A stretch of 64,000 bases of DNA from a virus. The notes beneath the pieces are model-generated. The model was not told the DNA's origin. It was given only the letters and a program-made list of their open reading frames with translations, and did not search any database. This document shows, piece by piece, positions 1,678 through 18,483 of this stretch (within the stretch, counting starts at the first letter, position 1; every line of letters begins with the position of its first letter). The stretch is from positions 88,465 through 152,464 of IMG/VR virus record IMGVR_UViG_3300033049_000020. One strand, written 5' to 3'. Both the position numbers and the translations under genes were made by a program.

Positions 1678-2174
1678 TGGAAACAGATGGAGATTACGAT
1701 ACTGGATGGGATGAATCAGAAGATACTGAACTAGAAGCATGGGATGTAGAAACGGATTCTGAAGACCCAGAATTTGAAACTGGTAAGGAACCAAATAAGG
1801 ATATTGATTATTTATACATTCTTGGTGAGGCTTGGCCAGTATATCCGCAAGGTATCACCACTATTTTCGAAGATAAATATGAAAGACCTCATATTGTATC
1901 TAGAGAGCAATTTGATGCTATTCACACCAAATACTCTTGTATAGATATTGATGATGAGGTAACGGCTATCGATATAGTCAAAATTGGAAACACATCTTAC
2001 GAATTTACCATTAAAGAACTTAATATCAGATGTCGCTCTAACTATCCTTGGGCATTCTTTGAGAACACTCCAGAGAATAGACCGAAAATCAATGAGTACT
2101 ATAGACAGAAAAAGAATAGAGAAGAGTTGGCTGAAATAGTTGAAGTATTAAGAAACGATATTGCACAACTATGA
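1677..2174 (+). CDS. acidic hypothetical protein
   Basis: A 165-residue protein whose first 45 residues are strongly acidic (Asp/Glu-rich, low complexity), followed by a more ordinary globular part. Such acidic N-termini occur in DNA-mimic proteins, but nothing else supports that role. It overlaps both neighbours. Confidence 0.8.
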   Translation: METDGDYDTGWDESEDTELEAWDVETDSEDPEFETGKEPNKDIDYLYILGEAWPVYPQGITTIFEDKYERPHIVSREQFDAIHTKYSCIDIDDEVTAIDIVKIGNTSYEFTIKELNIRCRSNYPWAFFENTPENRPKINEYYRQKKNREELAEIVEVLRNDIAQL

Positions 2175-7376: not shown

Positions 7377-7538
7377 ATGAGTAGATATGAAGTAAGGGTA
7401 ATATGGTACGAGGGTGCCACTCAAACTGAAATAATCACAGGTAACCTAACCATGGGTAATAATTATTATCAGATAGTTGACGAAGATTTTAAGGACTGGT
7501 TCTTCCCAATGGGAAGAACCGTAATTCAAGAACTATGA
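7377..7538 (+). CDS. small hypothetical protein
   Basis: A 53-residue soluble protein, unrecognised. It is supported by a strong promoter exactly 4 nt upstream and by overlap with the following short frames. Confidence 0.6.
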   Translation: MSRYEVRVIWYEGATQTEIITGNLTMGNNYYQIVDEDFKDWFFPMGRTVIQEL

Positions 7539-7571
7539 AAGGATTTATATTTTGTATATGGATGTTTATGG

Positions 7572-7730
7572 ATGTTTATAACACTTGTACTTGTACTTAG
7601 TCTTATAGGTTTGTGGGTGGTATTACCTACCACAACACATTACGTTGAAGGTCCGCCAAACATCATTAGAAGTGACTGGATGATATTAGGTGACAAATTA
7701 CTGGAAGCGGTATTAACGGATAAGAAATAA
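7572..7730 (+). CDS. small single-span membrane protein
   Basis: The 52-residue frame starts with about 18 hydrophobic residues (FITLVLVLSLIGLWVVLP), a membrane anchor or uncleaved signal, followed by a polar tail. It has no recognised homologue and follows the preceding gene by 33 nt. Confidence 0.55.
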   Translation: MFITLVLVLSLIGLWVVLPTTTHYVEGPPNIIRSDWMILGDKLLEAVLTDKK

Positions 7731-8844: not shown

Positions 8845-8957
8845 TGGCGTATGGTGTAGTGGTAGCACACTTATAACGGAACCTGACCAAGGTTCTATTC
8901 AGCAACAAAAATTTCCATTTCGAGGAAGTAGCGGAGGTTCGATTCCTTCTACGTCAA
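8845..8957 (+). tRNA. tRNA-Glu-like (TTC) with insertion before the anticodon arm
   Basis: Acceptor TGGCGTA/TACGTCA, D-arm GTG/CAC, anticodon arm TTTCC-ATTTCGA-GGAAG (8912-8928), T-arm GGAGG/CCTTC, A73. About 43 extra nt lie between the D-arm and the anticodon arm. They contain a GAACCT/AGGTTC hairpin and the motif TTCAGCAACAAAAA. Without the insertion it is an ordinary tRNA. Confidence 0.6.
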
Positions 8958-9334: not shown

Positions 9335-9341
9335 AATTAAA

Positions 9342-9373
9342 TTTGGTAGTATGGATTATTTTACCTATCTTTG
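9342..9373 (+). promoter_or_regulatory. Bacteroidota-type promoter, leaderless gene
   Basis: TTTG then TATCTTTG, nearly the same sequence as the promoter of the structured RNA at 15810. The ATG at 9378 is 4 nt away. Confidence 0.8.
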
Positions 9374-9377
9374 TAGT

Positions 9378-11071: not shown

Positions 11072-11464
11072 ATGGAAGACAAGAAATTAACATTTGACGA
11101 GATTATAACTATCGCTAAAGAAATGTACGGTGATGATGGTGTATCTGACTTCGCTGAAGGAATGTGGTATAGCGTCCCAGAAGACTTCGAACCACTGTCA
11201 GAAGATGCTACTGCTGAAGAAAGAAAAAGTAGACGAGAGAATTATGCAAATACACAACCATTGGGGCATACTACAGAGGTAGATAGTACTGGTGGTATGG
11301 ACGAAGGTTCTGATTGGAGTACCGTACAACACTTTACCAAGCATGATGTGTACATCCAAACATCTGGATGGTACCAGTCTCATAGTGGAGTCGAATTCTA
11401 CGATGGGTGGGAATCCTGTTCTGAGGTAACACCTAAACAAAAAACAATAACTGTTTACACATAA
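11072..11464 (+). CDS. hypothetical protein, paralogue 1 of a tandem pair
   Basis: The 130-residue protein is clearly related along its length to the next gene: both begin ME(D/N)KKLTFDEII and share DFEPL, NTQPLG/DTQPLG, GGMD(E/K)GSDW, KHDVY and SGWY. The function is unknown. The pair arose by tandem duplication. Confidence 0.8.
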   Translation: MEDKKLTFDEIITIAKEMYGDDGVSDFAEGMWYSVPEDFEPLSEDATAEERKSRRENYANTQPLGHTTEVDSTGGMDEGSDWSTVQHFTKHDVYIQTSGWYQSHSGVEFYDGWESCSEVTPKQKTITVYT

Positions 11465-12404: not shown

Positions 12405-12869
12405 ATGGGAAAATATAAAATACTTATATCATATGGTACGGGTGATAGTTTCAATAATTATGATACTACCAGTTTCATTGAATTGGAATGGGATAATCTT
12501 GACGTAGCCAAAGAGAATTTGAAGGCTATTCGAGAGCACGACAATATGTGCGAGTTAGCCAATGCTTGGAGAACTAAATTCGAGGACAAGGTTAAATATT
12601 ACCAAGATAATGAAGACAAGTTCTGGTTTGTTTCGGATAGTAAGCCTTTACACAATAAGAATAAGTGTTATCATGCTATGGCAGACTATAAGAAGTCTCC
12701 AGACGATTTCACTTTAGTGCCAGATGATTACTCTGCACAACACCTCATTAAGTTTAAAGCTGATAACGGCAACTTGATGCAAATTCAAGCTTTTTGGGTT
12801 GGTTATTTTGAAAGATTTATGGGTGCTGAAATAATCACCGATGACTCAGATATGAAATTCATTAAATAA
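12405..12869 (+). CDS. hypothetical protein
   Basis: A 154-residue soluble protein of unknown function, between a UVR protein and a P-loop kinase and coupled to both (2-nt gap, 1-nt overlap). No motif recognised. Confidence 0.8.
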   Translation: MGKYKILISYGTGDSFNNYDTTSFIELEWDNLDVAKENLKAIREHDNMCELANAWRTKFEDKVKYYQDNEDKFWFVSDSKPLHNKNKCYHAMADYKKSPDDFTLVPDDYSAQHLIKFKADNGNLMQIQAFWVGYFERFMGAEIITDDSDMKFIK

Positions 12870-13711
12870 TGGCATTCAAAATTAAAGTATTACATATTAC
12901 GGTTGGCTTACCAGCTAGCGGTAAAACGACTTGGGCTAAAGAGCAAGCGGCTAAGGCTGGTTACTCACGTAATTTTGGTGCCATACACTTAGATGAGTGG
13001 ATGATGAGAGACCAATTCGATAGTTATTCTGACTTCATCGAGTCGACTTCATTTCGTCCATACTGTAGAGAAACAACCATCATTGATGGTTTGTTCTTGA
13101 CTGTGGCCAATATTGAGATGTTCTTGACAGCTTTGAATAAGAAGGGTATGTCATTTGAAAAGGTGGTTATTCATAAGTGGGATATTGACCGAGAATCATG
13201 TATCTGGAATGACTTATACCGTAGAGAGAAGGGTTCGGGTATTACTATTGCAAATGGTGAAATAGATATGTTCAGTAGAGAGCAACTAAAGGCTCTGAAA
13301 GATAAGTTCAATGGTACCGTATTCATTAGAGAGAAGCACTTAGTCGAGAAGAAAGAACCTTGGCAAGTATTTGCCAATCAGTACGAAATATATCACAATA
13401 GAGACGGATACGTAAAAAGCGAATCGTGGTCTGGTGGTGGTGATTGGAGAGACTGTTGGGAAGGTGGGGGCATTATTCATCCAGACTCAGAGCCTGAATA
13501 TATGAATGAGTTATATGACCTATTAAAGAAAATCGATGAGACTACTGACCACTACAAGTATAAAGTTATTCATAATTCGGTAGTATGGGAAGACGAGGAT
13601 TACGAGAACGACTACTATGGTGGTAGTGAGAAACGTATTCGGCACGTATTCTCTGTAGAGTCACTTTACAAAATGTTGGTTACTGATAAATTGATAGAAG
13701 CAATAACATGA
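12869..13711 (+). CDS. P-loop kinase (AAA_33 / polynucleotide kinase-like)
   Basis: The 280-residue protein opens with a Walker A motif GLPASGKTTW near residues 12-21. LDEWMMRDQ (an Asp-containing second motif) and a C-terminal region with LVEKKEPWQVFANQ follow. This matches small kinases of the zeta-toxin/polynucleotide kinase type that phosphorylate nucleic acid ends or small molecules. No phosphatase domain is visible. An RNA-repair role would fit a tRNA-rich phage but is only an inference. Confidence 0.7.
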   Translation: MAFKIKVLHITVGLPASGKTTWAKEQAAKAGYSRNFGAIHLDEWMMRDQFDSYSDFIESTSFRPYCRETTIIDGLFLTVANIEMFLTALNKKGMSFEKVVIHKWDIDRESCIWNDLYRREKGSGITIANGEIDMFSREQLKALKDKFNGTVFIREKHLVEKKEPWQVFANQYEIYHNRDGYVKSESWSGGGDWRDCWEGGGIIHPDSEPEYMNELYDLLKKIDETTDHYKYKVIHNSVVWEDEDYENDYYGGSEKRIRHVFSVESLYKMLVTDKLIEAIT

Positions 13712-14887: not shown

Positions 14888-15781
14888 ATGTTTAATATTT
14901 TTAACAAAGAGGTGTTTGACACCAAGAAGATAGTTACTGTGGAAGAAATCCACCAAGAGTTTGATGATGCACAAGAAAAAGTGTTAAAGGAAGCTTCAGA
15001 CATACTGGATGGTATTCCTACCAAAGATTCTAGATTAGAAAGGAAGGCACTTAAATTAGAAATTACTGGTTTCGCTAAGTCGGAATTATTACAGGAATAT
15101 TATACTAAGAATACCGAAATAGAAACTATTGCAAAAGCGGTGGAGGGTAGAAAACGTATGTTGGATAGTATTATGAAATTCATTCAGAAATATCCATACC
15201 AAAAGTTTATCACAGTTGATGAATTGGATAATATTTGTGGCAAATATGGGTTGATATATGCACCCGTCAAACACTACATCAAAGATGTTCCAGAGAAGAA
15301 TCTAGACGAAATAGTTAATAGGAAGGAGCTTCATAGTTCTGAAATAACACCAGTTGTTCATATTGTGTCAAAAATAAGTTTTTGGGACAATACACCACAA
15401 GATTATCAGGATTTTGTGAATAAGCATATCTTGAACCGAGTCTTTCCCGATAAAGAAATGACTGAACGAAACTTTGAACAAGTGATTGAAGAGCGAGGAT
15501 GGAAAGATGGTAAGTCATCCCAGTATTGGTTTAGGAAGGCAACTGTGAAGACTGAAGATAATGCTGGATTACAGGTTGCCGCTCCAGAATCACATTTTGA
15601 TTTGAAAGGATTGAAAAAGACCAAGAAATTTGGTTTCGCTAAAGTGGAATATATCGAAACTAAAGACCCAATTGTTTTTGAATACTGTAAAGACAATATT
15701 GTACGAATAATAAGTAAGTGGGGGACTGACGATGACCAATCATATTTGGACGAATCGTTGATTAATCAAAATTTAAACTAA
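14888..15781 (+). CDS. hypothetical protein, paralogue 2 of a tandem pair
   Basis: The 297-residue tandem paralogue of the gene at 13959 shares the same N- and C-terminal blocks; the middle (residues 150-210) is the divergent part. Function unknown. It ends just before the promoter of the structured RNA region. Confidence 0.82.
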   Translation: MFNIFNKEVFDTKKIVTVEEIHQEFDDAQEKVLKEASDILDGIPTKDSRLERKALKLEITGFAKSELLQEYYTKNTEIETIAKAVEGRKRMLDSIMKFIQKYPYQKFITVDELDNICGKYGLIYAPVKHYIKDVPEKNLDEIVNRKELHSSEITPVVHIVSKISFWDNTPQDYQDFVNKHILNRVFPDKEMTERNFEQVIEERGWKDGKSSQYWFRKATVKTEDNAGLQVAAPESHFDLKGLKKTKKFGFAKVEYIETKDPIVFEYCKDNIVRIISKWGTDDDQSYLDESLINQNLN

Positions 15782-15809
15782 AAGAAAAAGTGAAATAATT
15801 GTCCAAAGA

Positions 15810-15841
15810 TTTGGTAGTGTGGATTATTTTACCTATCTTTG
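15810..15841 (+). promoter_or_regulatory. promoter of the large structured RNA
   Basis: TTTG at 15810-15813 and TATCTTTG at 15834-15841, almost identical to the promoter at 9342. No ORF follows for 1.7 kb, so this drives RNA. Confidence 0.8.
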
Positions 15842-15845
15842 TAGT

Positions 15846-15862
15846 GTTCTTTGAAATGATAG
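15846..15862 (+). promoter_or_regulatory. boxA-like element at the start of the structured RNA
   Basis: GTTCTTTGAAATGATAG resembles the boxA-like GTTCTTTGACAT of the tRNA regions and lies at the expected transcription start. Confidence 0.5.
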
Positions 15863-16863
15863 ATATTGAAGTATTAGGATTTAAAGATTTATTTCTGCAA
15901 TTAAAAGCGAAATAACGGTTCTAAGGTACTGACAGCCGTGAAAGCGGCCTAGGGATAGTAGTGTTAGACAGAAGTTTGATGTTAACGCATTAAATGTTTA
16001 CTGCGGTAGGAAAGGCTCTTCGGAGTTACGAAAACATTACGTGCTCAGTGTTGCATATGTGGGCTGGTTCAAGGAGGTTAGACTCTCTGCCCAAAAAAAT
16101 GCAATTTATAGCGGCCATAAGCGCTCGTGGAGATGTAGTCTGCATCGAATAGAGTAATTAAATCTATATCCGATACTTCAACCTTTAAAAATATTTAGGA
16201 AATGCTTGGCATTAACCTGATGAGGCAATCACGAATGTAGTGGATACATTGCAATAGTAGTGATTGTAACTGGTAAGTGAGAACCAACCATGGAACGGTT
16301 ATCATAGTCTTGCCGCACGTAGAGTGCCAACATGCCTCTAAAGCATTAGATTCATACGATTGAGTGTGGGTCGTGGTTGACGGATGGTGCAAACCCCTCC
16401 CAAGACGCAAAGGAATAGTGAGAAGAGTGGTAGTTCGCCCTACTTTGTCCCCTTAAGTGGGATGCTCTTCTGGCGACATTATTCCGAGAAATTAAAGATA
16501 GATTGGAGAGTGACCTATTAGCGTAGGCGGCCTAGTTGGGGTGGAACATACTACGACACCCAACAACGTGGTTAGAGGTCATTGAAGAGTAAGTGTATGT
16601 GACGATGACACGCTCTCCTAACTGTATTGTTTACCGCAGCATCCGAGATTCAAGGTAGGACTGGGCGTTTGGTTTATCCAACGAAGAAAACTTGGGAGAA
16701 TTGGCGAGTCGATAGGGTAGATATACCTTGAATACGCGAAATAAATTGTTCAAAAGGGGCGAATCGAGAGTCGAGGTATTTGTCGTTCCAAACCGAGAAA
16801 CTCGAACTACTGGCGAGTAGATTCCACTAAAGATGAAAGCTTGTCTAGGGTGGTGAATACGTA

Positions 16864-17027
16864 GATGCCCCACCTGTTAAAAGGTTCCAACTACCGTTGG
16901 AGGATGGTCGTGGTCGGAGTGGTGTTCGATTAGTAGCAATGACTTGAAAAAATCAGAGGTCACTGTCATACGCTGTGAATGGGCGTATCGGTAGTCGGAC
17001 ACCGTAAGTTCTGATGAAGGGGTGCCC
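16864..17027 (+). repeat. structured RNA module, copy 1
   Basis: It begins ATGCCCCACCT and has a hairpin CCAAC-TACC-GTTGG, an A-rich CAGAGG segment, a TACGC/GCGTA hairpin and then CGGTAGT. That last segment complements the first hairpin loop (ACTACCG), a likely pseudoknot. Copy 2 follows directly. Confidence 0.7.
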
Positions 17028-17205
17028 ATGCCCCACCTATATGGTTCGAACTACCGTTCGAACAGAGATGTGTCGACTTCCAACCGACTATATAGCATTC
17101 TCGAAAAAAACAGAGGCAAAGGGGGTACGCTGCAAATGGGCGTAATAGGTAGCTATATCCGAATAAGTATAGTAAGTCGCCAGAGACTTGGGATTCATCT
17201 CTGGC
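17028..17205 (+). repeat. structured RNA module, copy 2
   Basis: It has the same order of elements as copy 1. The first hairpin is CGAAC-TACC-GTTCG, a compensatory C-G to G-C change relative to copy 1, and GGTAG again complements the loop. This covariation argues for selected RNA structure. Confidence 0.7.
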
Positions 17206-17212
17206 GGTAATT

Positions 17213-17297
17213 GGCGCAATAGCTCAGTTGGTAGAGCGAGGTTTAAAAATGCTACTTGTAGCGGCCTTGGTCGGTGGTTCGAATCCATCTTGCGCCA
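17213..17297 (+). tRNA. tRNA-Leu-like (TAA) with 16-nt insertion in the anticodon loop
   Basis: Acceptor GGCGCAA/TTGCGCC, D-arm GCTC/GAGC, T-arm GGTGG/CCATC, A73. The anticodon stem CGAGG/CCTTG encloses TTTAAAA, a perfect 7-nt loop for anticodon TAA, followed by an extra hairpin GCTAC/GTAGC. The variable loop is short, unlike normal tRNA-Leu. The isotype is tentative. Confidence 0.6.
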
Positions 17298-17302
17298 CAT
17301 AT

Positions 17303-17360
17303 GGGGAGGTCAGAGAGGTAGCATTAGGGCTACCCAAGGGTTCGAATCCCTAACTCTCCA
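17303..17360 (+). tRNA. minimal tRNA-like RNA lacking one arm
   Basis: Acceptor GGGGAG/CTCTCC and a T-arm (AGGG-TTCGAAT-CCCT) are present, but only 26 nt lie between them. They form a single hairpin GGTAGC/GCTACC with loop ATTAGG. At 58 nt it lacks a D-arm or an anticodon arm. It could be a functional mini-tRNA or a deletion relic. Confidence 0.45.
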
Positions 17361-17372
17361 CTATTATATAAG

Positions 17373-17570
17373 GTACGGTAGCTCAGATTGCGTTAGAGCA
17401 CTCTTCCTATTAGAGGTGTACAACTTGAAGTAGGAGTATTAAGATGACTGATAAGATAGTATAGTGAGATTCCCTGATGTACAAGGAGGAACGTTGCTAG
17501 AGTGAAATTGAAAGAAGTCTCGATATTAATAACATGAGAGGGGTCGGTGGTTCGAATCCCTCTAGTGCAA
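17373..17570 (+). tRNA. tRNA-Arg-like (CCT) with about 120-nt insertion in the anticodon loop
   Basis: The 5' part has a good D-arm (GCTC/GAGC) and CACTC-TTCCTAT. The 3' part has GAGAG, a T-arm with TTCGAAT and A73. Between them lie about 120 nt without tRNA features, too short for a typical group I intron. The acceptor strands pair only partly, so it may be a decayed or chimeric gene. Confidence 0.4.
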
Positions 17571-17595
17571 CTAAAATATTTTAAACGAATATACT

Positions 17596-18483
17596 ATGTA
17601 TAAAGGAGATTTAAAAAATGTACCATCAGAAGTGGTGGTAGTAATCTTGGAAAGGCAGTTAGAACAAGGCAATAGAAGGGATGTAAGTGTATTTGAAGAA
17701 ACTCTATATGCCCAACAAGATGAAAATGGGTTCGATTGGGATGCTGCGCCAGAAGGCGATAATTTTTGGGAGAGAGTTTTGGAGTTTGAGGAGTGGGAAA
17801 TATTTTTCGAGAAATATCCTAGGAAGTCTTGTGGAGATTATAAGGAGGGTGATTATATTATAGTTACTGAACTTCACGGTGAGTCTAACTACTATAATTG
17901 GTTTATGCCAAATGAAGTTATAAAAGTTGGTGGTGACCGTTGGATGGGGTCTTTAAGAGAACATTTTGCGGCTATAAGTGCTAACAACTACCCAAATGGT
18001 AACGGCATGAATTATAATTTTGAAGAAAACTACAAGATAAGACATGCTACAGATTGGGAAATATTATTATCATTTTGGGGTAGTTTTCCAAAAACTAAAA
18101 TTGAGTTACAAGTAGGGGACACTTACGAGAACTCAACAGGTAAGATGATGAGGATACATTCAATGAATAACAGTATGTTATGGTACATACATGAGAATGG
18201 TACTCTGTACGAGGAAGAAAAAAATACAATATTGGAACGATTAGAAAGGAAGTTATACAAGAATTATAAATCAGTAAATAATAAATCAAAAACAATTAAA
18301 AATGAAGTACACAGAGAGAATTCAGAATCAAGGCGAACAAGCAACAAAGGTATTAGAGCAATTAGGCAAAAGGTCGAAATTGCAAGCGCAAGCAGACCTG
18401 TTGGAAGTAGAGTCTCAGATATCCGACAAAGAAACAGACCTAGAAAATCTACGATTAGCGGAAGGAGAGTATTCTTTAACTAG
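17596..18483 (+). CDS. hypothetical protein with an overprinted C-terminus
   Basis: The 295-residue frame is acidic and ordinary up to about residue 235, with no recognised family. The last 60 residues are Arg/Ser-rich and overlap the gene at 18302 in another frame by 182 nt. The sequence just before 18302 looks like a normal intergenic leader. The tail is therefore probably an accidental extension after a frameshift, rather than designed overlap. Confidence 0.65.
   Translation: MYKGDLKNVPSEVVVVILERQLEQGNRRDVSVFEETLYAQQDENGFDWDAAPEGDNFWERVLEFEEWEIFFEKYPRKSCGDYKEGDYIIVTELHGESNYYNWFMPNEVIKVGGDRWMGSLREHFAAISANNYPNGNGMNYNFEENYKIRHATDWEILLSFWGSFPKTKIELQVGDTYENSTGKMMRIHSMNNSMLWYIHENGTLYEEEKNTILERLERKLYKNYKSVNNKSKTIKNEVHRENSESRRTSNKGIRAIRQKVEIASASRPVGSRVSDIRQRNRPRKSTISGRRVFFN

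What the first reader, a model, noticed from the sequence alone, without database searches (positions are those of the whole stretch)
16864..17205. Tandem RNA modules with a compensatory change and a repeated pseudoknot
Two adjacent copies share ATGCCCCACCT, a hairpin with loop TACC, a CAGAGG segment, a TACGC/GCGTA hairpin and a GGTAG segment. The first hairpin is CCAAC/GTTGG in copy 1 and CGAAC/GTTCG in copy 2, a paired change. In both copies the downstream GGTAG complements the loop. Internal covariation is strong evidence of a selected fold.
Basis: seen in the sequence. Interest (0 to 1): 0.85.

Follow-up and report, generated by a model that had tools for sequence, protein, structure and literature searches.

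The report
New structured RNA in phage tRNA arrays
A large phage, apparently of Bacteroidota bacteria, carries two side-by-side copies of an undescribed ~165-nucleotide folded RNA, which related phages carry as a single copy just upstream of a tRNA gene, so it is a real and conserved non-coding RNA of still unknown job.

Summary
A covariance model built only from these two finds single-copy homologues in two related phage records at E ~1e-16 and 1e-14. A pattern derived from them finds one more phage type. On five distinct sequences the fold is strongly supported: 24 pairs with changes on both sides, none of 500 shuffles reaches this, and slid controls give 3-8. The full fold is larger than reported: P1, P1b, P2, P3a/P3b, a CAG/CUG mini-stem, P5 and P6. 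The 'pseudoknot' UACC/GGUA is invariant in four sequences and broken in the fifth, so it is possible but unproven. No Rfam family matches, GOLLD and ROOL included, and GOLLD occurs separately in two relatives. Single copies end 4-6 nt before a tRNA, so the likeliest picture is a stable RNA co-transcribed with tRNAs and released by tRNA processing. The window also holds a second new RNA, 'domain A' (15886-16172), behind a Bacteroidota-type promoter, with homologues in two phages. Function is unknown; a role with tRNA or the ribosome is inference.

The parts
15811..15841 (+). Bacteroidota-type promoter (TTG...TATCTTTG) upstream of the non-coding region
   Evidence: TTG-N17..21-TANNTTTG occurs 35 times on the + strand of the window against 2.7 expected; the same motif precedes domain A in G048 and G031; a 97% identical promoter lies at about 9341-9377
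15886..16172 (+). Domain A, a second conserved structured RNA closed by AGATTTA/TAAATCT
   Evidence: Homologues in G048 (L112) and G031 (L080), nhmmer E 2.3e-19 and 1e-27; 18 pairs with changes on both sides in three sequences; CM R3
16173..16846 (+). Middle stretch without homologues; GC-rich, non-coding, folds somewhat better on the + strand
   Evidence: no nhmmer match in 0.92 Mb of related phage DNA
16847..17016 (+). Module B, copy 1 (M1)
16886..16901 (+). M1 P2 hairpin, loop UACC (16892-16895)
   Evidence: Covaries in five sequences, 100% of cells paired
16907..16943 (+). M1 P3a/P3b stem with conserved bulge UUAGUAG
16969..16987 (+). M1 P5 hairpin TACGC/GCGTA, loop YGNRAAUGG (T-loop-like sequence)
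   Evidence: All five pairs show changes on both sides among homologues
16990..16994 (+). M1 GGTAG, proposed pseudoknot partner of the P2 loop
   Evidence: GGUA present in four of five; no covariation
16995..17014 (+). M1 P6 hairpin, loop containing CCGUAAG (consensus NCCGAANAA)
   Evidence: Stem changes in every homologue while it stays paired
17017..17176 (+). Module B, copy 2 (M2)
17019..17034 (+). M2 P1 hairpin GGGG-UGCCCAUG-CCCC
   Evidence: GGGC/GCCC and ACGC/GCGT in homologues with loop UGNMCAUG
17044..17063 (+). M2 P2 hairpin, loop UACC (17052-17055)
17126..17144 (+). M2 P5 hairpin
17148..17152 (+). M2 GGTAG
17153..17172 (+). M2 P6 hairpin CTATA-TCCGAATAAG-TATAG
17180..17208 (+). Strong hairpin (CGCCAGAGA/TCTCTGGCG) between M2 and the tRNA; no U-run follows
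17213..17298 (+). tRNA-like gene with an enlarged anticodon region, downstream of M2

Best explanation
Module B is a free-standing structured non-coding RNA of about 165 nt, encoded inside the tRNA arrays of a group of large phages of Bacteroidota-type hosts and duplicated head to tail in this genome. Shown: the fold (P1, P1b, P2, P3a/P3b, P5, P6) is kept by covariation; conserved unpaired patches lie in fixed places; the single copies end 4-6 nt before a tRNA 5' end; in the window it lies downstream of a Bacteroidota-type promoter. Inferred: it is transcribed with the tRNAs, the tRNA maturation enzymes cut it out (RNase P at the next tRNA leaves its 3' end just after P6), and the stable RNA then works in trans by presenting the UACC loop, the UUAGUAG bulge, the A-rich CAGA segment and the T-loop-like P5 to a partner. 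That partner is most plausibly tRNA or another part of the translation apparatus.
For: CM R1 from the two window copies finds G002 (E 1.7e-16) and G009 (1.3e-14) in a scan of 32 records; an exact pattern finds G048 and near-copies of G002 in IMG/VR. Covariation: 24 pairs and 38 cells with changes on both sides, 0 of 500 shuffles, slid controls 3-8 pairs; helix table. Not obviously coding: no frame stays open across all homologues. Position: 6, 4 and about 4 nt between P6 and the next tRNA in G002, G009 and G048. Promoter. No Rfam match at E <= 1 over the module in three homologous loci.
Against: No expression data. In the window M2 is followed by a further 9-bp hairpin before the tRNA (40 nt gap), so RNase P would not directly give its 3' end there. 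Only five distinct sequences are known. The partner and function are guesses.
Confidence: 0.6

Rival explanations
1. The modules are the 3' part of one giant ornate RNA of about 1.3 kb (domain A, middle, B, B), comparable to GOLLD or ROOL, which works as a single large molecule or assembly.
For: One promoter, then an uninterrupted non-coding GC-rich stretch that folds better on the + strand (z -3.3 against -1.6); in G048 domain A is followed directly by B; GOLLD lies in the same kind of place in relatives.
Against: B occurs without a detected A in G002 and G009, and A without a detected B in G031; the 670-nt middle has no homologue; no GOLLD match in the window, and G048 and G031 carry GOLLD elsewhere as well.
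Confidence: 0.2
2. B is a cis-acting leader of the downstream tRNA, controlling its processing or transcription, rather than an RNA that works in trans.
For: Single copies sit 4-6 nt upstream of a tRNA.
Against: The downstream tRNA differs each time (Arg-TCT, Gly-GCC, two irregular ones); M1 is followed by M2 and not by a tRNA; most tRNAs in the same arrays have no such leader.
Confidence: 0.15
3. B is an undescribed ribozyme, for example one that cleaves itself or the array.
For: Compact fold with conserved unpaired core segments and a possible pseudoknot.
Against: No match to any Rfam ribozyme; no conserved cleavage-site context was recognised.
Confidence: 0.04

Closest known systems
GOLLD RNA (Rfam RF02032)
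   Same: Phage-encoded, structured, non-coding, near tRNA genes; function unknown; relatives of this phage carry it (PMC12286853)
   Different: No match of the window to the GOLLD model; B is about 165 nt against 800+ nt; helices and conserved loops differ; GOLLD coexists as a separate locus in G048 and G031
ROOL RNA
   Same: Phage and prophage RNA often near tRNA islands, with loop contacts and pseudoknots (PMC12286853)
   Different: No Rfam match in the window or in homologous loci; much smaller
T4 RNA C and RNA D (stable RNAs of the T4 tRNA cluster; from memory, not tested)
   Same: Short stable non-tRNA RNAs encoded among phage tRNAs
   Different: No comparison was made here; different phage group
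Bacterial RNase P RNA
   Same: Superficial likeness of short strings (ACAGAG, GGUA) and tRNA association
   Different: No match to the Rfam RNase P models in three homologous loci or the window

Membership tests
GOLLD RNA (RF02032) | Match to the covariance model of the conserved 3' domain | tested here: not met
   No match in G000, while G010, G013, G031 and G048 score 57-96 bits (below the 150-bit cut-off) and LR756502 scores 275 bits in the same kind of search
GOLLD RNA (RF02032) | Encoded by phage near tRNA genes | tested here: met
GOLLD RNA (RF02032) | Homo-oligomeric cage | not testable with these tools
   Needs cryo-EM or native gels
ROOL RNA | Match to the Rfam model | tested here: not met
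   No match in the window at gathering threshold or at E <= 5 in 15700-17700
RNase P RNA | Match to any Rfam RNase P model | tested here: not met
   No match at E <= 1 in L109, L112, L113 or E <= 5 in the window stretch
Structured RNA with conserved fold | Covariation in homologues beyond shuffled and slid controls | tested here: met
H-type or loop-junction pseudoknot (UACC/GGUA) | Pairing kept through compensatory change | tested here: inconclusive
   Three of four pairs never vary; the fourth is broken in G009
T4 RNA C / RNA D | Sequence or structural homology | not tested
   No sequence of these RNAs was compared

The most novel reading that the evidence does not exclude
Domains A and B are two parts of an undescribed phage RNA machine made from tRNA arrays that acts directly on translation: the invariant UACC loop of B pairs with the GGUA of tRNA D-loops (or of domain A), while domain A carries a copy of the universal 23S rRNA motif CUAAGGUA. 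The phage would use RNA mimicry to handle tRNAs or ribosomes.
Probability: 0.1. Interest if true: 0.85.

Novelty: new variant of a known kind. Interest (0 to 1): 0.6.

Why it matters
It adds two structured RNA families, absent from Rfam release 15, to the short list of phage RNAs that live among tRNA genes and have no known function (GOLLD, ROOL). They are short enough, B especially, to be tested directly by probing, in vitro processing and pull-down. That several unrelated structured RNAs settle in the same tRNA arrays of one phage group makes the question of what such RNAs do there directly approachable.

Tried and rejected
Exact pattern TACGCTGNNAATGGGCGTA in IMG/VR: none. Two looser patterns hit only protein-coding coincidences, as did a third apart from the known loci and the one genome-contig hit, in a Sulfurimonas MAG. 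blastn of the region or of single modules against 50,697 phage records: none. A DNA search of relatives with the whole region found nothing, but it also missed domain A in G031, which local blastn finds at E 7e-28, so that negative is worthless. The neighbouring 297-aa protein has no relatives found in IMG/VR. Long stem GGTGTTCGA/TCGGACACC from single-sequence folding: rejected, not conserved. A third module upstream: rejected. Divergent GOLLD or ROOL: rejected by model searches. A leader ORF of 19 aa at about 15856 seemed possible but G048 has no ATG there. Weak hits of R2 and R3 (E 0.003-5) in other records were not accepted.

Full report
WHAT WAS CHECKED. The window is the last 64 kb of a 152,464-base IMG/VR virus record. 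Its A1-like DNA-transfer protein is 54-79% identical to proteins of about 56 other IMG/VR contigs of up to 369 kb and about 48% identical to that of Cellulophaga phages phi17:2 and phi4:1. The record holds about 45 tRNA matches and a tmRNA. Promoters of the Bacteroidota type (TTG-N17..21-TANNTTTG) occur 35 times on the coding strand against 2.7 expected. The host is therefore probably a member of Bacteroidota; this is inference.

THE OBSERVATION. They lie at the end of a 1.8-kb stretch without a convincing gene (15782-17595), 40 nt upstream of an irregular tRNA gene. Neither copy matches any Rfam family.

HOMOLOGUES. A covariance model of only the two copies (R1) found one copy each in G002 (86 kb, E 1.7e-16) and G009 (321 kb, E 1.3e-14) among 31 related records. 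A pattern taken from the four sequences (ACTACCGT N40-60 AAAAAANCAGA N14-26 AATGG) was then scanned over IMG/VR and gave five contigs: G002 and two near-copies, G009, and a new one, G048 (160 kb). A five-sequence model (R2) found no further copy in about 50 related records, in two 640-kb phages, or in Cellulophaga phi17:2. The RNA is thus rare and confined, as far as searched, to this phage group.

THE FOLD. The conserved fold has P1 (loop UGNMCAUG; degenerate in M1), P1b, P2 (loop UACC), a long stem P3a/P3b with the one-sided conserved bulge UUAGUAG, an A-rich CAGA segment with a 3-bp CAG/CUG stem (broken in M2), P5 (loop YGNRAAUGG) and P6 (loop NCCGAANAA). On the MAFFT alignment, which knew nothing of the structure, 85.8% of cells pair against 70% in shuffles. 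24 pairs change on both sides against 11.9 expected, and 38 cells against 14.4; none of 500 shuffles reaches these, and sliding the partners by 1-3 columns drops the score from 0.53 to 0.04-0.13. The structure was derived from these sequences, so the slid control flatters it somewhat; the change-on-both-sides counts are the better evidence. Helix by helix, P2 reads TCCAAC/GTTGGA, GTTCGAAC/GTTCGAAC, TGAAC/GTTCA, TGTAC/GTACA, GACAC/GTGTC, and P5 reads TACGC/GCGTA (both window copies), TCTGA/TCAGA, GTTGA/TCAAC, CCAC/GTGG.

THE PSEUDOKNOT. UACC and GGUA are both present in four sequences; G009 has UACC but GGGA. No pair covaries. The loop ACUACCGU is more conserved than its proposed partner, which would also fit a contact in trans. 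The pseudoknot is therefore possible, not shown.

SURROUNDINGS. In G002, G009 and G048 the P6 hairpin ends 6, 4 and 4 nt before a tRNA. In the window M1 ends 4 nt before M2, and M2 is followed by a 9-bp hairpin and then the tRNA. Upstream, 15886-16172 is a second conserved RNA, 'domain A', with homologues in G048, where B follows directly, and in G031. Among three sequences 18 of its pairs change on both sides. All three copies of A lie about 45-70 nt behind a Bacteroidota-type promoter. A was not detected in G002 or G009, nor B in G031. G031 and G048 also carry a GOLLD RNA at another place. The stretch 16173-16846 has no homologue.

READING. The structured RNA is shown. Co-transcription with tRNAs and release by tRNA processing are inferred from position. 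Action on tRNA or the ribosome is a guess. The kind, structured phage RNA of unknown function in a tRNA island, is known from GOLLD and ROOL (PMC12286853); the families are new to Rfam.

Noticed in passing
window 15886-16172; L112 ~1215-1490; L080 ~11610-11330 (-): Domain A: a second conserved structured RNA behind a Bacteroidota-type promoter, with hairpins GCCG/CGGC, CUCG/CGAG, AACG/CGUU around UGAAAG and a conserved GUGGGCUGGUU..GAGG..UAGAC..CUC..GCCC domain.
   Followed up: yes
window ~15917-15930; L080 ~11577-11563 (-): Domain A contains (G)GUYCUAAGGUA; the G031 copy has GGUCCUAAGGUAG, which I recall as identical to a universal stretch of 23S rRNA. Could be mimicry or chance.
   Followed up: no
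window 8845-8957, 17213-17298; L086 ~7452-7575; L084 ~1720-1840 (-); L112 1680-1775; L080 ~11105-11250 (-): Many tRNA genes of this phage group carry insertions of about 10-70 nt in the anticodon region; several inserts share a UUCAGCA motif. G048 encodes an RNA ligase (PF09414) next to domain A, and the window a polynucleotide-kinase-like protein (12869-13711), so a splicing or repair system is conceivable.
   Followed up: partly
L075/L078 (G010), L076 (G013), L077/L080 (G031), L137 (G048), L136 (LR756502): GOLLD RNAs in this group of large phages and in a 642-kb phage; all but the last score far below the Rfam cut-off (57-96 against 150 bits), so the Rfam threshold misses them.
   Followed up: partly
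L089 ~7590-7620: A short copy of the 3' hairpin of domain A (GGAGGTTAAACTCTCGGCCCAAAAGG) directly upstream of a tRNA-like gene.
   Followed up: no
L112 ~2040-2640: A tRNA gene of G048 appears to be interrupted in the anticodon region and followed by a small helix-turn-helix/HNH-like ORF before an intact copy of the tRNA.
   Followed up: no
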